64,000 bases of DNA from Limnothrix sp. RL_2_0 (GTDB taxonomy: Bacteria > Cyanobacteriota > Cyanobacteriia > Cyanobacteriales > MRBY01). Numbering within the stretch: the stretch's first letter is position 1; each line of letters starts with the position of its first letter. The notes under the pieces were generated by a model. The model made no database searches. It worked only from the letters and a program-made list of their open reading frames with translations, and was not told the origin of the DNA. The position numbers and the translations under genes are program-made. The stretch lies in NCBI GenBank assembly GCA_012033055.1, contig JAAUPR010000012.1, forward strand, positions 1-64,000, in the 5' to 3' direction. Positions 4,684 through 17,528 of the stretch are shown piece after piece.

Positions 4684-5957
4684 GACTTACTTTCGGTAAT
4701 AGGGGATGCCCTTACTGATGTCAGGCGAGTTGGGATTCCCTGGTGATCCGCATATCCTTTATTTATAAATTTTTTTTGAAGGAAGGCTTCGTTGATGGAC
4801 TGCTTGCTTACAAATATTAATTTTCTGAAACGCCCATCGGGAAAAGATCTTTACTTTATCTTGCACGGTAGGTACATCAAAAGACTCATATCGACAAACT
4901 TGTATGTAAAAACCCTTATAACTTGCCGATTAAACTTCCCAGAGAATACGTAGATTTCACCTGCCCTTTCCCTATAGAGCTAAATATCTAAGTGATGTAA
5001 ATGTCTGTGGGCAAACATCTCTACAGAGCCTGTGAGCTAGGTGTTACAGCCTACAATGCATCCATCTCAGCCAGTGATACGTACGAGTGATACATACTAT
5101 TTATGAATAGGTGTAGCTAGACTTCATCTTTTGAAACAATTTGAGTTAGAGAATGTTCATTACTCTCTGTTATCAGCCCTTAATATTCACCACAAAAGTC
5201 ATTGTCAATCACATCATTTTTTTGCCTAGCTTTTAGTATTTTATTGACTGGTCGTAGCTCAATTTTTTAGAGGAAATAATAAAATATTATTTTTTTATGC
5301 AAAGTGGGAACTAATTCTTGTGAGTGTCGTCTGACATCAAAATCGAATTAAAAATATCTTCCTGAAAGCTTATACAAGTCAATTGTTAATAGTATTCAAA
5401 TCTTTACTAGAACTTTATTTGTTTTTCCTTGCCGAATAAGATGTTCCGCAGATATGCCGATCCGGTTTGTTCAATGTTAATTGTAGAATTCAGGATGATG
5501 ATTAAGTAAAAAGAAAGAGCCTGTGATCACCCATTCAAAATTTTCTGTTTATGGTGAAGTTGTGAATTTCTTGAAAAATGGAGGTTCTCTAAATGCATAA
5601 TTTTAAATCTCAGCTTGAAATTTTATGTTAACGTTCGGTGATCCGGCAAGAACTGTTTCAATACTGTGGCATTTTGCTAGAAATCCTTACGTATTGATGA
5701 TCAAATAATGCTTAATGATATTTTTCTCTAAATAAGGGGCAATATATATTGACAGAACAGTTTTTTGAGGTCAGAATCAGTCGAATTTGCTCTGTGCATC
5801 GATAATCTACTAAGAACATCCACTATTTTATTTGTTACTGCGGTCATCTGCGTATTAACTGACCACATGCCCTAGGCTCTAGTTTTGCGAAAGTTGGCTT
5901 TTTTCCCGTTTGTCCATCATCACGATCTACCCCTACTGAAAAGTGAGGAATTTTATT
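4684..5957. other. Long AT-rich non-coding region upstream of the surface-protein cluster
   Basis: About 1.27 kb with no credible ORF on either strand and no HIP1 palindrome until 5978, just inside the next gene. The J-domain gene and the surface cluster diverge from here, so it holds both promoters. I see no convincing terminator, repeat or RNA gene. The length suggests a long leader or several regulatory inputs for the surface cluster. Confidence 0.5.
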
Positions 5958-8636
5958 TTGTCTAATCCATCCCAGCGATCGCCCCAAATTATGACGATGC
6001 TTCGCCCTGTTATTGCCGTCGGGCTAGTCACAGGCGGTCTCTTCCAAATGGCATTGCCAGCTCTTGCTTTAGGCACAGCAGCAGGGGCAATCATTCGTAA
6101 CACCGCGACTGCCACCTATCAAGACGAAGATGGCAACAATTTTGAAGCCGAGTCGAACGAAGTGACTGTGACCGTTGCGAAAGTTGCTGGTATCACCAAC
6201 GAACCAAGTAACTTTAATAACCTAGGTACCGGCGGTACATCAACTACTCCTGGTACTGGTGCTGGTGGCACACTCTTGACCGGCCAGAACGCAGAATTTA
6301 CTTTTACCGTTACCAACACAGGTAATGATCTGGCGAATATCGTCATCCCAGCGGCGTCAGAGCTTACCCTCCAAGGTTTGAGCACGGCTGGTCTTGTGTA
6401 TGAGGTGAGTACTGATGGTGGAACAACCTTCGTTGATGCTACTGCCGGTACAACGATTCCTGATGTTGCCGTTGATGGCGAAGTGCTAGTTCGGGTTGTC
6501 GGCACTGTAACGGCAACTGCTGCTGGTGCTCCTGTCTCGGTTCGTTTAGGAAACACTGGTAGCAATGGTGCTCCTAATATCCCTGCCGCAGATACCCAAA
6601 ACCAGCCTGATATTGGTGGTAATGGTGATGTTGGTGGTGAAGCTGAGGATGTTCGAACAGAGAATGCCGCTGGCGCTGCGGTAACTGGTAACCCGGCGAA
6701 TGATCAACGTGAAGCAAGTGCTCTAGCTCAGCAATTTTTGGGTTCTAATCCTTTAGCCTTGGCTCGTATCGAGAAAACCAATGCCGGTTTCGTTGATCCC
6801 ACTCCGGGTGTTGGACCGAACGATCTGGCTGATGCAACGATCACTTACAACCTTGAGTTGGATGTTGAGACAGTCAGTCCTGACCCATTGTTTACGCCGG
6901 CAGATTTGGAAGGTCGAAATCTTACTGTCACCGGTATTGTAGATACAACTAACTTGGTGTTGGTTTCGGATGCAATTCCCGCTAATACAGCACTGAATGC
7001 TGCGAGTGCCGTTTCACCTACTACTGGTTCAACAGCTGGACAATGGACGCTAGTTTTCACAGGTGATGACCCAAATACGATTGATGCCGATGATGCAACT
7101 TGGAATACTAATGACGCAGCCGTAGGTACTGTTACTCGTATCGGTTGGGTTTATGACGCTGAAGCTAATGGGGCGATCGCCAGAGGAGAAACTGTTACCG
7201 GTTTCGCATTTACCGTAACGACTTCTGGTATCACAGATGCAGCCTTCCCTAATGGGACAACCATTGCAAACATTGCCCAAGTCTTTGGTTCTACCGATGA
7301 TGGAGCTGCTGGAGTTTCAGGCACACCGATCTTTGATGAGTCTGGTGACCAAGACCCCTCTAACTTTAACGGTAATACCCCCGGCCCCAATGAAGATGAC
7401 CCTGAGTCCAATGGTGTCGCCGACCCAGCCAACCATAATACCGACGCGAACAATGACAACAGCGTTGTTGGCGATCCTGGTGGTGAAGATAACGTTGTTT
7501 CTGTGATTCCCGCTGGAACACTACTCAACGGTCCCGACGGTGAACCCGGCGCTGATGGCAATATTTTTGGTGTTGGTCCAGACAACAACCACGACTTCCA
7601 GAACAAAGCCACACTGCCTACGGGAACTAACGTTACGCCAGATCAGAACACATTAGTTAATCCAGATCAAGTCCAATTCGACAATACTTTAAGTAACCCT
7701 GACCCGACTAATCCTCTGACAGGTGTACTTCTTCAGCCCATTCAGCCTAGCTTTGCGGGGGGTGATGACACCGATATCCCCGTTGGTACAACGGTGAGAC
7801 TTGACATTTTCATTAATGGAACTCCAACGTCTGCTCAGTATACCTACGATGGAACTAACTTCAATATTACAGCTGGAACACCGATTCTCATCCCAAGCAT
7901 CAGTCCGGGCGTTGAATTGGACTATGACGTCACTGTTGACTTGCCTGGGACCACTCCCCTTTCGACAGATCAAACAGGTGGTGGTACTGGTGATGACCTA
8001 GTGGGTGGCTTCCCAATTCCTATCATTGCTTTTATTGACGGTGATTCTGACGGTACTCCGGATCCTGGTGAGACATCCAATATCACGGTCAACCAAGTCT
8101 ATACAGGCTTCGTACGGCTAGTGAAGCAGTCTCGTATCCTTCAAGGTACAGGCCCCGCTGTTGCTGCTGGACAAGGAGATTTCAGCATTGCAGATAAAAC
8201 GCCAGCACCCGGCAATATCATTGAGTATCGAATTGTTTACCGCAATATTTCCGAAGCGCAAGCTGGTAGTGGAACGAATGATACTCTTATTGCCACTAAT
8301 ATGGTGCTGACTGAGGATGGAACAACAGGAACAGCGACCACCTCGAATAATTGGGCCCTTGATTTAAGTCCAGCTGATGGCACATTGGACACTGTTAACG
8401 TTCCAGGTTCTGCCGATGACACTAGTACGGGGTCCATTGTCAATTACGCTACTGGAAACCCCGCTGTTGTTGGTGGAACCATTGATCCGGGCGTTACGAC
8501 AACTGGTTATCAAGTAAATATTCCGTCTGTTCCTCCTACAGGTACAGCGCCAATTAGTGCGTTCAATGTAACAACGGCTCCTGTTCCAGCTGGATTTTTC
8601 CAATTTACTTTCCAACGGACCGTTAGCAGTCAATAG
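5958..8636 (+). CDS. Exported DUF11-type repeat surface protein
   Basis: A large secreted protein of nearly 900 residues, rich in Thr, Ala, Gly, Asp and Asn and poor in Cys and Lys. A signal peptide is visible (LRPVIAVGLVTGGL...ALPALALG), followed by AIIRNTATATYQDEDGN, a start typical of cyanobacterial proteins with the conserved repeat domain DUF11. Several immunoglobulin-like modules follow, each with the pattern of a conserved-repeat domain (FTFTVTNTGNDLANIVIP; ITYNLELDVETVS; IEYRIVYRNISEAQAG). Asp/Asn-rich loops in the middle (about 470-540) could bind Ca2+. Start choice: TTG at 5958 lies 9 bases after GAGG. The frame also allows GTG 5943 and ATG 5991, and the signal peptide is intact with all three. 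It is first in a co-directional set of five surface genes. The exact role (sheath, S-layer-like or fibre) is unknown. Confidence 0.75.
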   Translation: MSNPSQRSPQIMTMLRPVIAVGLVTGGLFQMALPALALGTAAGAIIRNTATATYQDEDGNNFEAESNEVTVTVAKVAGITNEPSNFNNLGTGGTSTTPGTGAGGTLLTGQNAEFTFTVTNTGNDLANIVIPAASELTLQGLSTAGLVYEVSTDGGTTFVDATAGTTIPDVAVDGEVLVRVVGTVTATAAGAPVSVRLGNTGSNGAPNIPAADTQNQPDIGGNGDVGGEAEDVRTENAAGAAVTGNPANDQREASALAQQFLGSNPLALARIEKTNAGFVDPTPGVGPNDLADATITYNLELDVETVSPDPLFTPADLEGRNLTVTGIVDTTNLVLVSDAIPANTALNAASAVSPTTGSTAGQWTLVFTGDDPNTIDADDATWNTNDAAVGTVTRIGWVYDAEANGAIARGETVTGFAFTVTTSGITDAAFPNGTTIANIAQVFGSTDDGAAGVSGTPIFDESGDQDPSNFNGNTPGPNEDDPESNGVADPANHNTDANNDNSVVGDPGGEDNVVSVIPAGTLLNGPDGEPGADGNIFGVGPDNNHDFQNKATLPTGTNVTPDQNTLVNPDQVQFDNTLSNPDPTNPLTGVLLQPIQPSFAGGDDTDIPVGTTVRLDIFINGTPTSAQYTYDGTNFNITAGTPILIPSISPGVELDYDVTVDLPGTTPLSTDQTGGGTGDDLVGGFPIPIIAFIDGDSDGTPDPGETSNITVNQVYTGFVRLVKQSRILQGTGPAVAAGQGDFSIADKTPAPGNIIEYRIVYRNISEAQAGSGTNDTLIATNMVLTEDGTTGTATTSNNWALDLSPADGTLDTVNVPGSADDTSTGSIVNYATGNPAVVGGTIDPGVTTTGYQVNIPSVPPTGTAPISAFNVTTAPVPAGFFQFTFQRTVSSQ

Positions 8637-8770
8637 AACATGTTTTGAATTTTTGGCTAGAGTAGTTGGTCATAGATTCAAAAACGACTAAGGGGGCAGA
8701 ACGCTCGCTCCCTTGTATGAAGACTGTCTTCGACAAATCAATTTGAATTTTTAAGAGGTTGAGTTTACCC

Positions 8771-9370
8771 ATGAAACGTCTACATAAATATTTGGGCTTC
8801 GGTGCTCTCGGAATTGCTCTCACACTACCTTTGCTAGGTAATACTCCAGTACTTGCCAATTTACAAGAAGTTGGTGCGAACATTGCTCAGATTATCAACC
8901 GCCCAAAAGTTGAGCTGAATCTGTCTGCCCACAAGAAAATGGTTAAAACGGATCAACTAGGTAAAGAGGTTGTCACATACCAAGATCTTGGTGCGCAGGC
9001 AACTGTTCTCCCGGGCGAAACCTTGCGGTATCAGTTGGAGAGCAAAAATGAGGGGGATGTTGCGGCTGGCAATCTTACTTTAAGTCAGCCAATTCCGAGT
9101 GGGATGACCTATCTCATCGGATCTGCCGCAAGCAACAATAATTCCGTCATCACTTATAAGCTCAATGATGGTTATGAGCGCCCTGCCGATAGTCAGGAAT
9201 TTGAAGCTGAGCCTCAAATTCTAGTGGAAGTTCTTCAGGACGATGGTTCTGTAGTGAAAGAGATTCAGGCTGCACCTGCTGAGGCGTATGCTCAAGTCCG
9301 TTGGGAATTTGACACGAACCTCAGTCCACAGAGTAGTCTCAAAGCAACTTATGAAGTTGTAGTGAATTAG
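8771..9370 (+). CDS. Small exported DUF11-domain protein
   Basis: About 199 residues from the ATG at 8771. An N-terminal signal peptide (LGFGALGIALTLPLLG...VLA) is followed by one conserved-repeat module: VLPGETLRYQLESKNEGDVA, LTLSQPIPSGMTYLIGSA and a closing WEFDTNLSPQSSLKATYEVV. This is the usual DUF11 order (an LRY...N.G strand, a P.P.G.TY turn and a C-terminal strand). An in-frame TTG at 8759 would sit directly on the AAGAGG ribosome-binding sequence, so the ATG is preferred. It lies 134 bases after the large DUF11 protein and 159 bases before the next gene. It may be a minor subunit or cap of the same surface structure; that is inference from context only. Confidence 0.75.
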   Translation: MKRLHKYLGFGALGIALTLPLLGNTPVLANLQEVGANIAQIINRPKVELNLSAHKKMVKTDQLGKEVVTYQDLGAQATVLPGETLRYQLESKNEGDVAAGNLTLSQPIPSGMTYLIGSAASNNNSVITYKLNDGYERPADSQEFEAEPQILVEVLQDDGSVVKEIQAAPAEAYAQVRWEFDTNLSPQSSLKATYEVVVN

Positions 9371-9529
9371 GAACCTTAGTCACAGCAATCACTAGAGGGA
9401 TGCTCTGTCATCTCTCTAGTAATCTCGATTAGCTAATTGCTAACTATTTTTTTGGTAGAAAGTAGATGGACTTACCACTATCTTCAACCATCTTCTACTG
9501 GTTTTATCGTATTGGATTAGGGAAATTAG

Positions 9530-11149
9530 GTGCTTTTAAAAAATTCCAAATACAAATTAAATAAGCTTCCCAATTTCCGGACTCCGAAAAACTTTTTTAG
9601 TTGGGGAACTTATCTACCTTTAACATGCCGCTCTGCCACTATATTTGGGCTTATCTTTAGTTTGGGTCAGCCAATGGCGATCGCCCAGACAGGTGTGGAT
9701 GAGAATGAGATTACTCGGCTATTCAACGAAGCAGCAGCAATATATTCAGACCAAGACAATCCGGGATCACCACCACTTAATGCAATCAGTAATACCGTGG
9801 AGACAAATTCCGATAGATTAGTTGACCCTTTTGGGCGGATCATTGGCTGCGATGGTAATGTCTTTGACAGCTACGAAGGGTTTACTGTTGGCTTGTATGA
9901 AGCGACAGGAGTAACAGGATCTGATTTAGGTCCATTAGTTACGCTACCTAATGCTAGTGCGGCCGACATTATTTCCTTGGGCAATCAAAATGTAAACGCC
10001 AATAATGATAACCCCTTCTCTTTAGGATTGACTGATGGGCTTGACCCCTCACAGCGAGGCCAATTTAATTTCCTTCTTACTCCAGATCAGGTGACTCCGG
10101 GTAGCGCTTATATCATTGTGATTAGTCCTCCCCCAGAATCATTTTTGGATGCCCGTCGTATTCGGATTTCGATTATTGCATTGCAAGGGGATCAATTGTC
10201 CTATTTAGCGACGTCCCTTGATGGACTGCCATTGGGTCTTGATAATACAGTGCCTGTTGGTCAACAACTGACTTTGGAACAAGGACAAAATACTGCTGTT
10301 GTTGTGTTTGCGTTCCCCGGCAATGCAGATATTCCGGTATGTCAGAGCCAATCTATTCGCATCGAAAAAACTGCTGACCGCGTGACCACTGAGCCGGGTG
10401 GATTTGTTATTTACCGGTTGAATGTGACAAACCTCAGTACGACTACCCTCAATAATGTTGAGATCAGCGATCGCCTGCCATTCGGTTTCACCCTCCTCGA
10501 AGATTCAGTACAGGCTGTGATCGGTGATCAACCTGCGGATCTAACCACAACTGCCGATGGGCGTAATATCACTTTCCGTTTTAATGAAGGTCTTCCCGGT
10601 GGTACGCCGCCGAGTAATAATCCCCTTGCCAGAATTGTCTATGCTACCGAAGTTACCCCCGATGCCATACGAGGTGATGGTCGTAACTTTGCCCTTGCGT
10701 CCGGCGGTAGAGCCGATAGTAATTTTGTGGTTAACGATGGTCCAGTTGTTTTCCGGGTCAATATTCGTGAAGGACTACTGTCCGATTTGGGAACCTTAAT
10801 TGGTCGAGTTTTTGTCGATAAAAACTTTGATGGGGAACAGCAATATGGTGAACCCGGTGTGCCTAATGCGGTGGTCTTTTTGCAAAACGGCAATCGCATT
10901 GTTACGGATAGAGATGGGCTTTTCTCTGTTGCCAATGTGCGACCCGGCTGGCATGTCGGCGTGTTGGATCTGACGAGTGTTCCCGGCTATACGATGGCGC
11001 CTAATCCCTACGTTCTGAGATCTGAAACCCAGAGTCGAGAGGCACGCCTAGAACCGGGTGGTTTAGCTCGGATGAATTTCGCTGTAACTCCCGTAGCAGA
11101 GGATTTGACCAAAGACCAAGGGGAGAAGCTCGACGGAGGGGGTAAGTGA
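9530..11149 (+). CDS. Exported protein with DUF11 and SdrD-B-like domains
   Basis: 539 residues from GTG 9530, which has AGGGAA five bases upstream. The N-terminus is long and basic before a hydrophobic segment (ATIFGLIFSLGQPMAIAQ) that looks like a signal peptide. Residues about 60-275 form an uncharacterised region containing VDPFGRIIGCDGNVFDSYEG. A DUF11 module follows at about 277-400 (RIEKTADRVTTEPGGFVIYR, VEISDRLPFGFTLLEDS). An SdrD-B/prealbumin-like module at about 421-515 has VFVDKNFDGEQQYGEPGVPN and DRDGLFSVANVRPGWH, a classic Ca2+-binding DxNxDGxQ turn. Its TGA overlaps the ATG of the outer-membrane barrel gene by one base (TGATG), so the two are probably translationally coupled. 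Acting as a plug, adaptor or substrate of that barrel would fit, but this is inference. Confidence 0.78.
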   Translation: MLLKNSKYKLNKLPNFRTPKNFFSWGTYLPLTCRSATIFGLIFSLGQPMAIAQTGVDENEITRLFNEAAAIYSDQDNPGSPPLNAISNTVETNSDRLVDPFGRIIGCDGNVFDSYEGFTVGLYEATGVTGSDLGPLVTLPNASAADIISLGNQNVNANNDNPFSLGLTDGLDPSQRGQFNFLLTPDQVTPGSAYIIVISPPPESFLDARRIRISIIALQGDQLSYLATSLDGLPLGLDNTVPVGQQLTLEQGQNTAVVVFAFPGNADIPVCQSQSIRIEKTADRVTTEPGGFVIYRLNVTNLSTTTLNNVEISDRLPFGFTLLEDSVQAVIGDQPADLTTTADGRNITFRFNEGLPGGTPPSNNPLARIVYATEVTPDAIRGDGRNFALASGGRADSNFVVNDGPVVFRVNIREGLLSDLGTLIGRVFVDKNFDGEQQYGEPGVPNAVVFLQNGNRIVTDRDGLFSVANVRPGWHVGVLDLTSVPGYTMAPNPYVLRSETQSREARLEPGGLARMNFAVTPVAEDLTKDQGEKLDGGGK

Positions 11150-14100
11150 TGAAAATCCTTCAGTCCCCTGTATTAGTTTGTGCCCTTGTGTTAGCTAGCA
11201 CTTGTAGTGCTTTCACTGCTCAGGCAGAAGAGCCATTGCTAATTGCCCAAGTACCTGATGCTTCGGCTGGGATCAGTGGCGATCGCCAGATGGCAGTCCA
11301 GTTTCTCAGCCCAGTGATGGATGCTGTGTTGGAGGACAATTCCGCGACTGTCGTTATCGAAGCCCCCATGGGGAGTCGCGTTGAGTTAGAAGTTAACGGA
11401 GTTGCGGTTGATCCCGGTCAAATTGGGCAGCTTGAAACCAATCCCAGCAAAGGTACCATGCGTCAACTTTGGTATGGTGTCATTTTTAGCGCAGAGGATA
11501 ATACCCTAAAGGCGATCGCCACCCTTGATGGCAAGAGTGTCACCACAGAAATCAAAGTCCAAGCCCCGGGCTTAGTAGCCGCATTGCGCCTAGGAACCAT
11601 CGAACAACGGGTTCCCGCTGATGGCCGATCCACTGTTACAGTCCAAGGTTTTTTATTAGACAAAAACGGCAACGTTTCCAACCGAAGCGGGCGCGTTACC
11701 TTAGTGCCTTCCTCCGGAGAATTTATTGGGGTTGATGTTTATCCCGATATCGAAGGTTTCCAAGTCGATGCCCGCGACGGACAATTTACCGCCACATTGC
11801 AGACCTCCCTCGATAGCGGTTTGGTGCAAATTCGTGCCGATCTTTTTGAGCTAGAAGCCTTCACCCAAGTTCAATTTGAAACCGCTTTACGCCCCAGCTT
11901 GATGACTGGTGTGCTTGATTTACGCATTGGCGCAGAAAATACCAACTATTTCGGGAGCTTCCGAGATTTCCTAGACCCTGATTCCGATGGTAGTACGGAC
12001 GTTGATTTTAATGGCGCGGCTTTCGCCACTGGCGCTATTGGTGATTGGTTATTAACCGCCGCGTTTAATTACGATCGCCCTTTGAATGAAACCTGTGAAA
12101 CTTGTACCAGTCGTCTTTACCGCGCGGATCAACAATCAGAAAAGCCCTATCCGGTGTACGGCGACGAATCTACAGTCACTAATATCACTCCATCCCAAGA
12201 CCAACTCTATTTCCGCCTCGAACATTCCCCCAATATTATCGGCGCTGATCCCGATTATGTAATGTGGGGGGACTACAGTACAAACCGTGAATTTGCGACT
12301 TCATCCCAAGAATTTAGTGCTTTCAGCCGTCAACTCCATGGCGCGAAGATTAACTACAATCTCGGCAATTTACAGCTGTCTGGCCTATTTAGTCAGGGGG
12401 GCGAATCCTTCCAGCGCGATACGATTTTGCCGGATGGGACAACTGGATTTTATTTCTTGACTCAGCGGTTGGTTGTTCCCGGTAGTGAAGAGATTTATTT
12501 TGAGTTAGAAGAGCTAGAACGTCCCGGTTCTGTTGTGCGTCGCGATCGCCTGCAACGGGGTACAGATTACGACATTGATTATGACCGTGGCAGTATTGTT
12601 TTTGTCGATCCAGTCCTCCGTACCGAACTTGGTTTAGAAGGGGAGCTTTTGGTACGTCGGGTGGTGGTGGCCTACCAGCATGAAAGTGCCTCAGAAAATA
12701 AGGTCTACGCTGGTCGTGTCCAATACCATTTCAACCGTGAGCAAAACCAGAAGAGTTGGATTGGTAGCACCTTTTTTCAAGAAGATAAAGGCGATCGCGA
12801 CCTGCAAGTGTATGGCGTTGATGCCCAGTTTTTCCTCAGCGAAAATTATAAATTCCAAGCCGAATATGCCCACAGTAACAACGACTCTTCCGTACTGGGT
12901 AATGTATCCGGGAGTGCCTACCGCCTAGAATTTAACGGTAAATTTTCCGATTCGATCACCGGTCGCGCCTACTATCGCCATGCCGATACCGAATTTGCCA
13001 ACCAATCAACCGTTAGCTTTGTCCCCGGTCAAACCCGCTATGGTGCGGAGCTAGATGCCAGCATTACCCCTACCACGCAATTCCGTTTCCGGTACGACCA
13101 TGAAGCTAACAACGGCGCAAGTATTCGTCCCATCATTAGCCTAGGGGATTTGCTCGCAGCAGAAGATGAAGGCATTCCCGAAACCCTTGTTGACAGCACT
13201 TTGACCACCGTTTCTGCTGGGGTTGTCCAGAAGCTCGGCAAGTCTAATCTCACCCTTGACTGGATTTACCGCGATCGCCAAGATGATTTCAACCCCAATA
13301 ACAGCACGAGTTCTAGTCAGTTACGGACTCGCTTTACCACGCCCCTCACCCAGAATCTAAGGATCAGTCTCTCCAATCAAACGACCCTTTCTGCAAATAC
13401 CGACGCTATTTATAACGACCGTACCCAAGCCAGTCTCGATTGGCGCTTATTGCCCGGCCTGAATCTCGCCCTTAACCAAAACTGGTACACCAGAGGCAGC
13501 CTTGCCGGACAGTCCACTACCAGCATTAACCTAGGGGGCGAATATCGTCTCTGGAAAGATGCTGTGTTTGTGGGTCGCTACGGTGTAGAAACTTTCAATA
13601 CTGGCCTCCAAGACACTGCCGCCTTCGGGGTGAAACAGCGCTTGACCGTGTTACCCGGTTTACATATCGATACAGCCTATGAGCGGGTGTTTGGTAATCT
13701 TTTCGTTGGGGCTGATGGTGGTGTTGGTCAAGGGGTCTCACGGGCGGCTCAATCCCGCAGTGGTGACAGCCTCAGTGTGCGGGCAAGCTACACAGACAAT
13801 CCCAACTTTAAAGCCCAAATGTTGTACGAATATCGCACAACCAATGATAGTAAAACCTCTAATGTTTCTGGTTCCCTCCTCGGCAAACTATCCCCTGCTG
13901 TAACTGCGCTGTTTAATTTTGACCGCCGCTTTGCTGCTGGAGCTGCCAACAGAGGTTTACCGGCTTCTAGTAATATTCGTCTTGGTTTAGCCTATCGCAA
14001 TCCCCACAGCGATCGCCTCAACGCTTTATTACGCTATGAATATCGTCGCAACCCCGATACGATTCCCGACAGTCTGCTTGTAGGAACTGGCATCGGCACC

Positions 14101-15846
14101 AAAGAACATTTATTAGCCGGGGAAGCCATTTATTCTCCTAACTGGCAATGGGAATTTTATGGCAAGGCTGGTTTCCGCCACAGCACCGTTGATCTTGCAG
14201 ATACCTTTAGTGCTCGCAGTACCGTCGGTTTAGCCCAGTTTCGCGCAAGATATCAGCTTAACCATCGCATTGATTTGACTGGTGGTATTCGCTGGATTGG
14301 CCAGCCGACAGCAGGCTTTAATGAAGTGGGTTTCCTTGGGGAAATTGGTTTCCAAGCGACTCCCGGTCTCCGCCTAGCCGTGGGCTATAGTTCCGGTGAA
14401 GTGAACAATGACCGTGATTTTAGTGGTAGCCGTTCCGATGGTGGTGTCTATTTCGGAGCTATGCTCAAACTGGATAACTTGTTTGAAGGTTTTGGTTTGC
14501 AGCAGCCGGTGGGACAGGAAAAAATTCGTCGCCAAATTGTTGTGGACAATCCTGATGCGGTGGATGATGGCACATTACAAGCTGTTGCGCCTCAGCCTTT
14601 ACGGTTAGATGTTTCCCAGACCATTGATTTCACTTCTGCTAGTGCGGCTTTATCAACGGAAGGTCGGGTTGTGCTCGATAGTTTGGCGACAGTCATGCGG
14701 CAATATGATGACTTGACCATTGATATTCAAGGGGTACTTCCTCCTCTTGCTGAATTGACACCGGATAATCTTGATGCTCAACGGCTCCAAGCGGCAAGGC
14801 AATATCTTCTCAGTCGTGGGATAACTGGCGATCGCATCGTTATTCGTTCATTGGGTCAAGTTGAAACCCTTGAAGTTGCTCAAGTTAAGCGTACTCCTCC
14901 AGTCACATTTGCGCTGAATGCTCCGGCTGATACGTTCCAATTATTGTCTTCCCAGTTAGGGGGAGAGGGTTTGGTCAGTAGTCTGATTGGTCAGGAGTTA
15001 CCGGAATTGGCAACTTTGCCGCCGTTGGCTGATGAAACTGTTGAACGCGATCGCCAAACAACTCAAGCATCCAGAAATGGTGCAACTACTGAGGCTTGGG
15101 GTCAGCAACCTGTGGCGATCGCCCCCACTGAGCTAGAAGCTGTGCCTATTCGTGTACCGCTGCTCTCCTTTGTGCCTGAGTTAAATGAGCTGAATCTATC
15201 GAATGAATCCCTAACGATTAATTTAGAAACGCCAGATTTTGATGAGCTGAGTTCTGAAACAACAGATTCATTTACTACAGGCTTTTCCTTCTCCGATACA
15301 CCAGAATGGATTCTCGGTTTTGCGCCAGTGGAAGGTCAGCTAGAAGAACCTTTGGCGATCGCCCTCCGAGCCAACCCAGAGACCCCAGAACAACTGATTT
15401 CTTTCCTCTCGGAACCCACCGAAGCACCTGAGACGATTGTCGGCGATCGCCGCATTGGTGGAGAGAATGGCACAGACGAAACCCTCACCTTTGGCGAACA
15501 ACCCCTGTTAACCAGCCTGTTAGATTTCGCCAATATTCAGGCGAGCGATTTCAGCTTCCCCGTATCACCGACCGACATTGCCCTCAACTCCACCGGGGAA
15601 AATCCTTTGATCCTGAGCCAAGTCGTTACACCAAACCCACCTTTTGCCTTGAACTCTGCCATGCCCAATTCTCGACAAGTCCGCCGTTTGGAAGCCGCCC
15701 TTACCTTCCTGCTTAGCGATGATGTGGATGCCCTTGATGCGTTGCTATTACAGGCAACTGGCAACCGCGCCCCAGAGGTGCAGGGACAACTGGTTGATTT
15801 GGATCGCGTGATGCAACTCAACTCCGCTACGGAGGGAACGCTATGA
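11149..15846 (+). CDS. Very large outer-membrane beta-barrel protein with OmpA-like domain
   Basis: About 1565 residues. The ATG at 11149 follows GGAGGGGG with good spacing; GTG 11146 is also in frame. A signal peptide (VLVCALVLASTCSAFTAQA) is followed by periplasmic immunoglobulin/Big-like modules (about 40-250), then a region rich in alternating aromatic strands (about 260-1120) with YPVYGDEST, QLYFRLEHS and YVMWGDYST. These motifs occur in large Gram-negative surface barrels associated with DUF11/SdrD-B proteins. Many segments read as barrel strands (RVQYHFNREQ, SITGRAYYRHADTEF). At about 1150-1250 there is an OmpA/MotB-like peptidoglycan-binding fold (IDFTSASAALSTEGRVVLDS, DAQRLQAARQYLLSRGI). 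The last 300 residues are acidic, Pro/Leu-rich and unassigned. It overlaps the next gene by 4 bases (ATGA). It could be the exporter or anchor for the neighbouring surface proteins. Confidence 0.72.
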   Translation: MKILQSPVLVCALVLASTCSAFTAQAEEPLLIAQVPDASAGISGDRQMAVQFLSPVMDAVLEDNSATVVIEAPMGSRVELEVNGVAVDPGQIGQLETNPSKGTMRQLWYGVIFSAEDNTLKAIATLDGKSVTTEIKVQAPGLVAALRLGTIEQRVPADGRSTVTVQGFLLDKNGNVSNRSGRVTLVPSSGEFIGVDVYPDIEGFQVDARDGQFTATLQTSLDSGLVQIRADLFELEAFTQVQFETALRPSLMTGVLDLRIGAENTNYFGSFRDFLDPDSDGSTDVDFNGAAFATGAIGDWLLTAAFNYDRPLNETCETCTSRLYRADQQSEKPYPVYGDESTVTNITPSQDQLYFRLEHSPNIIGADPDYVMWGDYSTNREFATSSQEFSAFSRQLHGAKINYNLGNLQLSGLFSQGGESFQRDTILPDGTTGFYFLTQRLVVPGSEEIYFELEELERPGSVVRRDRLQRGTDYDIDYDRGSIVFVDPVLRTELGLEGELLVRRVVVAYQHESASENKVYAGRVQYHFNREQNQKSWIGSTFFQEDKGDRDLQVYGVDAQFFLSENYKFQAEYAHSNNDSSVLGNVSGSAYRLEFNGKFSDSITGRAYYRHADTEFANQSTVSFVPGQTRYGAELDASITPTTQFRFRYDHEANNGASIRPIISLGDLLAAEDEGIPETLVDSTLTTVSAGVVQKLGKSNLTLDWIYRDRQDDFNPNNSTSSSQLRTRFTTPLTQNLRISLSNQTTLSANTDAIYNDRTQASLDWRLLPGLNLALNQNWYTRGSLAGQSTTSINLGGEYRLWKDAVFVGRYGVETFNTGLQDTAAFGVKQRLTVLPGLHIDTAYERVFGNLFVGADGGVGQGVSRAAQSRSGDSLSVRASYTDNPNFKAQMLYEYRTTNDSKTSNVSGSLLGKLSPAVTALFNFDRRFAAGAANRGLPASSNIRLGLAYRNPHSDRLNALLRYEYRRNPDTIPDSLLVGTGIGTKEHLLAGEAIYSPNWQWEFYGKAGFRHSTVDLADTFSARSTVGLAQFRARYQLNHRIDLTGGIRWIGQPTAGFNEVGFLGEIGFQATPGLRLAVGYSSGEVNNDRDFSGSRSDGGVYFGAMLKLDNLFEGFGLQQPVGQEKIRRQIVVDNPDAVDDGTLQAVAPQPLRLDVSQTIDFTSASAALSTEGRVVLDSLATVMRQYDDLTIDIQGVLPPLAELTPDNLDAQRLQAARQYLLSRGITGDRIVIRSLGQVETLEVAQVKRTPPVTFALNAPADTFQLLSSQLGGEGLVSSLIGQELPELATLPPLADETVERDRQTTQASRNGATTEAWGQQPVAIAPTELEAVPIRVPLLSFVPELNELNLSNESLTINLETPDFDELSSETTDSFTTGFSFSDTPEWILGFAPVEGQLEEPLAIALRANPETPEQLISFLSEPTEAPETIVGDRRIGGENGTDETLTFGEQPLLTSLLDFANIQASDFSFPVSPTDIALNSTGENPLILSQVVTPNPPFALNSAMPNSRQVRRLEAALTFLLSDDVDALDALLLQATGNRAPEVQGQLVDLDRVMQLNSATEGTL

Positions 15847-17528
15847 AATCCTTCAACTTACTAACATTCCGTGCCAATAGCCTCGGCGTGAAATTACTCG
15901 CAGTTACGCCCCTGATTGCAACTGCCATCGTCAGCGCAGATATCCAATCTGCACAAGCTGAAGTGCCGATTCGTCCCGCCAGTGATCAGATGTTTAGCCT
16001 CACTGTAAATAGCGAACTCGATGGGCCGATTACGCCGGATGCGTTGCTTACACTCCGGGAGGCGATCGCCTTAACCAATGCTGATATCACGTTAGAAATG
16101 TTGTCCGATGTAGAACGGAGCCAAGTAGCAATATTGCCCGATGTCAGTGGTTCTAGCATTACTTTTGCCATGCCCCTAGGGAATACGATTCGTCTGAAAT
16201 CCCTGTTGCCCCCCCTCCGCCAAGCAGGACTTCGTTTAGACGGCACAAATTCCGCTAGCGAAGATTCTACAGCGATTACCCTGATGCCCGATGACTCCGT
16301 GAGCATCCCTATGGGTTTCCTCGCCATGGCCGATAATCTCAGCATTCAAGGCTTCAATTTTCATGGCTTCCATAGTGACATCAATAATTTCTACGCCGAC
16401 TATCCTTTCGTGGGTTCTGTGGTTGTGAGTACCGGACAGATGCTCTATGACTTGGGTCGTTTAGTAGATATTGTCCAACTGGAAGCGCCGCGTAATGTGT
16501 TGATCGAGGCGAACCAATTTGGTGACGAAACTTCTGCGGAAGATGCCTCGGCTTTTGGGGTGGTGCTATTTGAGGCTGACCAAGCGACGATTCAGCAAAA
16601 TCAATTTTTCAATCAAAGTAGCAGTGCTATTCTCACAGGCAAAATCGCCCATAATTTCACCGTCAGCGACAATTTATTTATCGGCAATGGTCGGGAAGGT
16701 TTAGGCAATGCGATTCACCTCGGCGGCAATATTGATCAAGGAATGGTGCGGGGTAATCAGTTTTGTCGGAACTACGGATCTGGGGTGTTTATGTTTAAGC
16801 CGCAGGGGGCGATCGCCATCGAGAATAATCAGTTTTACGACAACGGTTTACCAGCCGTCCCCCTCGGCATTGATGACACAGCAACCCAAACTAAGACCGC
16901 CGCTGTATATCTCATGGGCGTGAAACATCGGGTCATTAATAACCAATTTCTCAAGCAAAACGGAGCTGGAGTGGTGGTGGCAGCCTATCCCCGCACCGAA
17001 GGCATCATGATTCTGGATAATACTTTTGCGGAACTACAGGGTCTGAGCATCGATCTGGTGACCCGCGAATCTACTGGAATTTATGATTATTTATCCGGTG
17101 ATGGCGCTAATCCCCTGCGTAACTTCCGTCACCGCCGCACAGAAACGGGTAACAGTGCCGTGGATGCCCCCCAGTTTGCTGGCTCTGAGTTTTTTCCCTT
17201 CGGCGATCGCGTTTTGGTTTCCGGCACAGCCGATCCCGGTGTGACCATTGATCTCTATCGTGTATTGGAAGGTGGTAGTTATTTCGGCCCTCTTAACGAA
17301 CTTGTCTTACAAACTGTCGCCGATGCCGAAGGCAAATTTGAGGTGTATTTAACCGACTGGGAACTAGGCGAAACCCTATCGGCGATCGCCACCGATTCCT
17401 ATTACGGCACATCTGAAGCCGCCGAAAACGCTATTATCCGTTCCTACAATGATTCGATGACAGCAGTCGAATGGGATGAAGCCTTGAATATTGTTATTCC
17501 GGAAGAGTGCAAACCTCCCAGCCAATAA
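15843..17528 (+). CDS. Exported parallel beta-helix (NosD-like) protein
   Basis: 561 residues with a probable signal peptide (LGVKLLAVTPLIATAIVSADIQSAQA). After ITPDALLTLREAIALTNAD, a start common in cyanobacterial surface beta-helix proteins, right-handed beta-helix coils run over about 140-400 with repeated asparagine-ladder coils such as VLIEANQFGDET, ATIQQNQFFNQSSSAI, FTVSDNLFIGNG and IAIENNQFYDNGLPA. A C-terminal beta-sandwich-like domain follows (VLVSGTADPGVTIDLYRV, GKFEVYLTDWELGETLSA). The start ATG overlaps the stop of the barrel gene (ATGA), so it is made together with it. I see no lyase or hydrolase catalytic signature, so a structural or glycan-binding role is as likely as an enzyme. 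Confidence 0.75.
   Translation: MKSFNLLTFRANSLGVKLLAVTPLIATAIVSADIQSAQAEVPIRPASDQMFSLTVNSELDGPITPDALLTLREAIALTNADITLEMLSDVERSQVAILPDVSGSSITFAMPLGNTIRLKSLLPPLRQAGLRLDGTNSASEDSTAITLMPDDSVSIPMGFLAMADNLSIQGFNFHGFHSDINNFYADYPFVGSVVVSTGQMLYDLGRLVDIVQLEAPRNVLIEANQFGDETSAEDASAFGVVLFEADQATIQQNQFFNQSSSAILTGKIAHNFTVSDNLFIGNGREGLGNAIHLGGNIDQGMVRGNQFCRNYGSGVFMFKPQGAIAIENNQFYDNGLPAVPLGIDDTATQTKTAAVYLMGVKHRVINNQFLKQNGAGVVVAAYPRTEGIMILDNTFAELQGLSIDLVTRESTGIYDYLSGDGANPLRNFRHRRTETGNSAVDAPQFAGSEFFPFGDRVLVSGTADPGVTIDLYRVLEGGSYFGPLNELVLQTVADAEGKFEVYLTDWELGETLSAIATDSYYGTSEAAENAIIRSYNDSMTAVEWDEALNIVIPEECKPPSQ

What the first reader, a model, noticed from the sequence alone, without database searches (positions are those of the whole stretch)
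5958..17528. Five-gene surface cluster: DUF11 proteins, giant barrel, beta-helix protein
Three exported DUF11/SdrD-B proteins, a ~1565-residue outer-membrane barrel with a periplasmic OmpA-like domain and an exported beta-helix protein lie co-directionally; the last three overlap by 1-4 bases. The set looks like a self-contained system for building or displaying a fibre, sheath or adhesin, with the barrel as anchor or exit pore. This is the best candidate here for an undescribed intact system.
Basis: partly seen in the sequence, partly recalled or inferred. Interest (0 to 1): 0.75.

Follow-up and report, generated by a model that had tools for sequence, protein, structure and literature searches.

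The report
Donor-strand fibre cluster with giant barrel
A widespread but unnamed set of bacterial genes that appears to build a surface fibre from Ig-like proteins that complete, and perhaps covalently lock, one another, held in the outer membrane by an exceptionally large beta-barrel; nothing of the kind is described in the papers I could search.

Summary
Five exported proteins (A-E) lie head to tail at 5943-17528, with 4-nt overlaps at C/D and D/E. A-B-C-D order is conserved in 70 of 72 cyanobacterial loci. C occurs in the same genomes as the barrel D (44 of 45), and so does a sixth protein, F, which is unlinked in this genome. E and the OmpA domain are accessory. AlphaFold2 supports D as an outer-membrane barrel with up to 42 strands (the widest known has 36), at moderate confidence.

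The main new result is a donor/acceptor logic. A, B and F end in one C-terminal motif, [FY]xxx[VIL][KRNQD], where a DUF11 (Ig) domain would still need its last strand. A and C start, just after the signal peptide, with what looks like that strand, carrying an invariant Asn. C is donor only, and fused to the barrel in Acinetobacter. A is donor and acceptor. F (variable N-terminus) and B are acceptors only. This predicts a fibre D-C-(A)n-F/B built by donor-strand complementation, possibly sealed by Lys-Asn isopeptide bonds.

No usher or PapD chaperone is in the genome, and D does not match SprA. Thermus and Acinetobacter plasmids carry relatives. Fibre and covalent link are inferences; nothing was tested at the bench.

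The parts
5943..8636 (+). Protein A (897 aa; likely start ATG 5991): signal peptide, N-terminal donor segment, DUF7925, C-terminal DUF11-like acceptor domain; proposed shaft subunit
6069..6200 (+). A donor segment (residues 43-86, GTAAGAIIRNTATATYQDED...SNEVTVTVAK); Asn53 invariant in 93/93
8100..8633 (+). A acceptor domain (about residues 720-897): K728 in 92/93, E/D791 in 93/93, ends FTFQRTV-SSQ
8759..9370 (+). Protein B (203 aa; likely start ATG 8771): single DUF11-like domain that stops at the penultimate strand (ATYEVVVN end); acceptor without the catalytic acid; proposed cap or minor subunit
9530..11149 (+). Protein C (539 aa): signal peptide, donor segment, complete DUF11 domain, SdrD_B domain; proposed base subunit next to the barrel
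9695..9829 (+). C donor segment (residues 56-100); Asn66 invariant in 94/94
10331..10774 (+). Complete DUF11 (CLIPPER) domain of C with K280, D314 and N386 invariant in 94/94
10787..11104 (+). SdrD_B domain of C
11146..15846 (+). Protein D (1566 aa): signal peptide, Ig domains, giant barrel, OmpA domain, C-terminal tail
11290..11886 (+). Ig domains of D (residues 49-247; invasin/intimin/GH2-type)
11899..14472 (+). Predicted outer-membrane barrel of D (residues 252-1109), up to 42 predicted strands
14596..14874 (+). OmpA-like peptidoglycan-binding domain of D (in most relatives it is on E or absent)
15843..17528 (+). Protein E (561 aa): exported right-handed beta-helix plus Ig (Big_6); accessory, in many relatives carries the OmpA domain

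Best explanation
The cluster makes an outer-membrane-anchored surface fibre assembled by donor-strand complementation of split DUF11 (CLIPPER) domains. D is the giant outer-membrane barrel, here fixed to peptidoglycan through an OmpA domain, and serves as platform, exit pore or anchor. C is the base: its DUF11/SdrD_B body sits at the barrel, and its mature N-terminus carries a beta-strand or hairpin with an invariant Asn, the donor. A is the shaft: the same donor at its N-terminus and, at its C-terminus, a DUF11-like domain that stops before the last strand, the acceptor. F is the tip: a lineage-variable N-terminal part ending in an acceptor. B is a single acceptor domain, a cap or minor subunit. 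Subunits join head to tail (donor of n into acceptor of n+1) with F's variable region outermost. Where the acceptor keeps Lys plus Asp/Glu (A, F) and the donor brings Asn, a spontaneous Lys-Asn isopeptide bond may seal the joint. SHOWN: gene order, co-occurrence, motifs and their invariance, C-D fusion in Acinetobacter, barrel-type sequence and model. INFERRED: strand exchange, covalent bond, fibre, subunit order, and export through D.
For: Order A-B-C-D in 70/72 loci, C/D overlap of 4 nt in 58. In 386 cyanobacterial genomes C co-occurs with D in 44 of 45, F's C-terminal domain in 44 of 45 and A in 40 of 45, including genomes where F is unlinked (this one). C-terminal motif [FY]x3[VIL][KRNQD]-COOH: A 84/99, B 97/100, F 92/101, against C 1/111, D 0/123, E 0/44, other ORFs 1/589. 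Donor motif near the N-terminus: A 98/99, C 95/111, against B 0/100, D 1/123, E 1/44, F 7/101, other 22/589. A-Asn53 93/93, C-Asn66 94/94, A-K728 92/93, A-E/D791 93/93, F Lys 96/101, F Asp 100/101. Profiles of the A and C N-termini are homologous (E 1e-9). The A-N-terminus HMM hits Thermus A (E 2e-10) and the Acinetobacter C-D fusion (E 4e-7) just after their signal peptides. The alignment of C's complete DUF11 with B runs out at B's last residue, before C's Asn strand. C's DUF11 superposes on CLIPPER 9ifr (Z 14.8, rmsd 2.4, 121 residues). C and D are one polypeptide in Acinetobacter (E 1e-40 and 3e-95). Barrel. The set without A (C'-D'-E'-F') still has donor and acceptor.
Against: No structure of a donor-acceptor complex was computed or seen. 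The match of the donor to a canonical DUF11 last strand rests on the N-x-A register, and profile comparison of those short segments alone is not significant. B mostly has Gln where the catalytic acid should be, so a covalent joint is unlikely there. The motifs were found by inspection of the same families, although Thermus and Acinetobacter are out of sample. This genome's A carries SSQ after the motif, and 15 of 99 A proteins lack it. The barrel model has mean pLDDT 74 and pTM 0.64, and closure of a single barrel is not shown. D's role as pore, as opposed to passive anchor, is not tested.
Confidence: 0.6

Rival explanations
1. A T9SS-like secretion and display system: D is a protein-conducting translocon and the C-terminal DUF11-like domain of A, B and F is an export signal, like T9SS CTDs; no polymer forms.
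For: F has a conserved C-terminal domain behind a diverse N-terminal part (blastp hits between 495/595 pairs of C-terminal domains against 142/595 pairs of N-terminal parts), restricted almost entirely to genomes with D. T9SS substrates are targeted by a C-terminal beta-sandwich bound inside 36-stranded SprA (PMC10994853, PMC10418385). SprA appears among the structural matches (Z 10.4, rmsd 17).
Against: It does not explain the invariant Asn segment at the N-termini of A and C, or why C has donor but no acceptor and F the reverse. No TIGR04189 match in D or 37 relatives. The match of D to SprA is no better than to usher, SlpA or porins.
Confidence: 0.2
2. A passive anchor and sheath: C-D-OmpA (and E) form an outer-membrane to peptidoglycan anchor on which A, B and F sit as a non-polymeric surface coat or S-layer-like cover; export uses another route.
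For: OmpA domain in D or E; invasin/intimin-like Ig domains in D and a structural match to the Deinococcus SlpA barrel (Z 13.1); C resembles Gram-positive basal and shaft pilins.
Against: Most loci have no OmpA domain at all in D or E, so peptidoglycan anchoring is not the conserved core. The donor/acceptor split points to chain-like linkage.
Confidence: 0.13
3. A is a closed monomer in which its own N-terminal strand completes its own C-terminal domain; the motifs reflect intramolecular folding, and the cluster is a set of ordinary fibrillar adhesins.
For: A carries both halves in one chain.
Against: C has only the donor (its one DUF11 is complete, K280/D314/N386 all present), while B and F have only the acceptor, so at least these must pair between molecules.
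Confidence: 0.05

Closest known systems
Chaperone-usher pili (type 1, P pili)
   Same: Ig-like subunits lacking the last strand, an N-terminal donor strand in the next subunit, a tip subunit without donor, a large outer-membrane barrel encoded beside the subunits; FimD is among the best barrel matches (Z 13.4)
   Different: No usher (PF00577) or PapD-type chaperone (PF00345) in this genome; barrel predicted much larger than the 24-strand usher; subunits are DUF11-type with isopeptide residues; the base (C) is fused to the barrel in Acinetobacter
Type 9 secretion system (SprA and CTD cargo)
   Same: Giant barrel plus diverse cargo with a conserved C-terminal beta-sandwich domain
   Different: D does not match the SprA model; donor segments at N-termini have no T9SS counterpart known to me; other T9SS parts not searched
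Archaeal threads (Saci_0406, PMC9715654)
   Same: Head-to-tail donor-strand filament with a proposed isopeptide link between subunits
   Different: Non-canonical bond between Asn57 and the alpha-amino group of Asp24; archaeal, no outer membrane or barrel; no sequence relation shown
DUF11/CLIPPER fibrillar adhesins (PMC12617251) and grappling hooks GhpA/GhlA (PMC13319060)
   Same: DUF11 Ig domains with Lys/Asp/Asn isopeptide triad; 9ifr superposes on C's DUF11
   Different: Those are long chains of complete domains; here domains are split between proteins and a dedicated barrel is encoded
Gram-positive sortase pilins (SpaD, EbpB, BcpA)
   Same: C has the CnaA-like plus CnaB-like arrangement of backbone/basal pilins
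   Different: Subunits there are joined by sortase; here the C-termini end with the last strand, with no sorting tail

Membership tests
Chaperone-usher pathway | Usher family protein (PF00577) | tested here: not met
   No match in the whole genome, E. coli control rings
Chaperone-usher pathway | PapD-type periplasmic chaperone (PF00345) | tested here: not met
   No match in the whole genome, E. coli control rings
Chaperone-usher pathway | Subunits with an Ig fold lacking the last strand and an N-terminal donor strand | tested here: inconclusive
   Supported by motifs and profile alignment; no complex structure
Type 9 secretion system | SprA translocon (TIGR04189) | tested here: not met
   No match in D and 37 relatives; genome search also negative, but its controls held no positive
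Type 9 secretion system | Cargo with conserved C-terminal beta-sandwich domain | tested here: inconclusive
   F, A and B share a DUF11-like C-terminal domain with a common end motif; relation to T9SS CTDs not tested
Type 9 secretion system | PorV carrier and GldLM/PorLM motor | not tested
   -
DUF11/CLIPPER isopeptide domain | Lys, Asp and Asn triad in a CnaA-like fold | tested here: met
   C: K280, D314, N386 in 94/94; model superposes on 9ifr, Z 14.8. Bond formation itself not testable here
Grappling hook proteins (GhpA/GhlA) | A single chain of several thousand residues with dozens of DUF11 domains | tested here: not met
   A is 897 aa, C 539 aa; this genome's F is 1651 aa with ten DUF7933 repeats
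Outer-membrane beta-barrel | Signal peptide plus transmembrane antiparallel strands closing a barrel | tested here: inconclusive
   Barrel family matches in relatives and AF2 model with up to 42 strands; closure and membrane location not shown
Archaeal threads | Saci_0406 homology and Asn57-Asp24 link | not tested
   -

The most novel reading that the evidence does not exclude
A new class of Gram-negative surface fibre that polymerises by self-ligating split CLIPPER domains: the N-terminal Asn strand of one subunit completes and covalently locks the Lys/Asp-bearing C-terminal domain of the next, a natural counterpart of SpyTag/SpyCatcher, assembled on a single-chain barrel larger than any described, with a swappable tip protein, shared by Cyanobacteriota, Deinococcota and Pseudomonadota.
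Probability: 0.4. Interest if true: 0.9.

Novelty: new variant of a known kind. Interest (0 to 1): 0.78.

Why it matters
It would give a function and a name to one of the commoner conserved gene clusters of unknown function in filamentous and some unicellular cyanobacteria (about one sampled genome in nine), add a donor-strand fibre without usher or chaperone, possibly set a new record for barrel size, and supply a family of natural split-domain ligation pairs. The donor/acceptor prediction can be tested with small recombinant fragments.

Tried and rejected
Searching other phyla with the genome search is not possible, since 'of' takes only genome handles; breadth outside cyanobacteria rests on plasmid records. 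Papers on cyanobacterial exoproteomes hold no mention of these proteins under the terms tried; the DUF11 signal peptide tested in Synechococcus PCC 11901 (PMC13297417) could not be matched to this family. PADLOC gave nothing, Rfam nothing in the window, promoter/terminator scans no better than shuffles. A lead that a conserved DYDIDYDRG stretch of D resembles SprA (from memory) was not borne out by a sequence search against solved structures. hhalign of the donor segments against C's own last hairpin gave only the expected register, not significance. PDB profile searches with B and F gave no meaningful relative. The NosD/copper-maturation label of E was rejected: far below NCBIfam's cut-off.

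Full report
WHAT IS THERE. The five ORFs are present at the stated place: A 5943-8636, B 8759-9370, C 9530-11149, D 11146-15846, E 15843-17528, all on the + strand, with C/D and D/E overlapping by 4 nt. All begin with signal-peptide-like sequences (read from sequence). Domains: A DUF7925; B DUF11; C DUF11 and SdrD_B; D an invasin/Big_1-type Ig domain and OmpA; E right-handed beta-helix and Big_6. The host is a cyanobacterium. A genome listed as the same genus (G058) has a contig of 3,087,720 bases, the length of the chromosome of Picosynechococcus sp. PCC 7117.

CONSERVATION. A D search of 386 cyanobacterial genomes gave 47 matches. I fetched 40 neighbourhoods and 80 further loci that carry organism names (where 414 stretches encoded relatives). 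In 70 of 72 named loci with enough upstream sequence the order is A-B-C-D, and in 58 the C stop overlaps the D start by exactly 4 nt (maps). A further gene, F, follows D or E in 55 of 72 loci, and E in 19. Some genomes have a second, shorter set C'-D'-E'-F' without A and B.

CO-OCCURRENCE. Across the same 386 genomes, counting 45 with D, C is found in 44 and one other; F's C-terminal domain in 44 and two others; A in 40 and three others (counted; Fisher p from 1e-55 to 3e-45). The genomes are related, so these p values overstate independence, but the set spans many families and the agreement holds where F is unlinked. The four well-supported D genomes without A have only the short C' type.

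THE BARREL. AlphaFold2 on residues 30-1140 with 51 relatives (pLDDT 74, pTM 0.64) gives Ig domains and then 42 strands of seven or more residues between D residues 252 and 1109. Some may belong to loops or a plug, so I read it as roughly 36-42 strands. Barrel-family matches in relatives (DUF2490 in 24 of 38, Porin_4 in 5) agree independently. Structural comparison places usher FimD (Z 13.4, 301 residues, rmsd 8.0), SlpA (Z 13.1, rmsd 13.9) and SprA (Z 10.4, rmsd 17.0) among the matches; these are large barrels in general and do not name a relative. SprA, with 36 strands, is given as the widest single-polypeptide barrel known (PMC10418385). The OmpA domain moves between D (Picosynechococcus type), E, a separate protein (Acinetobacter) and absence.

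C IS A PILIN-LIKE BASE. The AlphaFold2 model of C (pLDDT 76) resembles Gram-positive backbone and basal pilins; its DUF11 domain superposes on the solved CLIPPER domain 9ifr (Z 14.8, 121 residues, rmsd 2.4). The isopeptide triad K280, D314, N386 is invariant in 94 of 94. In Acinetobacter the C module and the barrel are one polypeptide (C profile 616-851, E 1e-40; D profile 912-2003, E 3e-95), so C and D very likely act together.

THE DONOR/ACCEPTOR LOGIC. A, B and F are different proteins, but they end alike: [FY]xxx[VIL][KRNQD]-COOH in 84/99, 97/100 and 92/101, against 1/111 (C), 0/123 (D), 0/44 (E) and 1/589 other neighbouring ORFs. Distant F-like proteins of Acinetobacter and Thermus end the same way. 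Aligned to the complete DUF11 domain of C, B ends at the strand before the one carrying the isopeptide Asn. So the terminal domains look like DUF11 folds without their last strand or hairpin. The missing piece appears elsewhere: A and C begin, a few residues after the signal peptide, with IxNxA...Y, in 98/99 and 95/111, against 0/100 (B), 1/123 (D), 1/44 (E), 7/101 (F) and 22/589 others. Asn53 of A is invariant in 93/93 and Asn66 of C in 94/94; acceptors keep Lys and an acid (A K728 92/93 and E/D791 93/93; F 96/101 and 100/101), while B mostly has Gln at the acid position. The N-termini of A and C are homologous (E 1e-9), and a profile of A's N-terminus finds the N-termini of Thermus A (E 2e-10) and of the Acinetobacter C-D fusion (E 4e-7), which were not used to build that profile. 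Hence C is donor only, A donor and acceptor, B and F acceptor only. The A-less C'-D'-F' sets still hold one donor and one acceptor.

MECHANISM. These roles fit a chain D-C-(A)n with F or B at the end, F's variable N-terminal region outermost, as in other donor-strand pili where the tip lacks a donor. Because the donor brings Asn and the acceptor (A, F) keeps Lys and acid, the joint may become a covalent isopeptide bond without an enzyme; that is the least certain step. Rivals are a T9SS-like translocon with a C-terminal signal, a passive anchor with a coat, and intramolecular closure of A.

COMPARISON. No usher or PapD chaperone family is in the genome, with E. coli controls positive, so it is not a chaperone-usher system although it may work like one. 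D and its relatives do not match SprA. Archaeal threads combine donor strands with a proposed unusual isopeptide link (PMC9715654) but have no barrel. DUF11 grappling hooks are single giant chains (PMC13319060). I found no description of this cluster in the open-access library; most subscription papers and all preprints were not searchable, so it may be described elsewhere.

LIMITS. Motifs were found by inspection and then counted. Short donor segments alone do not align significantly with C's own last hairpin. The models are of moderate confidence and no complex was modelled. Rows are related genomes, not independent events.

Noticed in passing
L156:8486-13441 (G000 contig C136): This genome's F lies alone, between leuS and the sbtA/sbtB bicarbonate transporter genes (read from the translations), far from the cluster.
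   Followed up: partly
L052, L055, L057, L058, L060-L066: A second, paralogous set with short C (about 310 aa), barrel, E and F but no A or B, often in genomes that also have the full set.
   Followed up: partly
G014, G045, G145: The C-terminal half of A (DUF7925 side) occurs in open frames of 1141-2711 aa in three genomes without D.
   Followed up: no
L072 (Acinetobacter haemolyticus plasmid), L073 (Thermus brockianus plasmid), L071 (Synechococcus NIES-970 plasmid): Relatives of the cluster sit on plasmids in three phyla, which suggests horizontal spread.
   Followed up: partly
L074 (Roseivivax plasmid): A DUF11 protein of about 6100 aa is followed directly by a D-like barrel, a possible one-chain version of the fibre.
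   Followed up: no
upstream of A in Nostocales loci (L077-L126): A divergently oriented gene of about 434 aa sits upstream of A in many Nostocales; not identified.
   Followed up: no
L159/L160 (G000 contig C27:37515-38081): Another large protein (open frame 1789 aa) with SdrD_B-like stretches in this genome.
   Followed up: no
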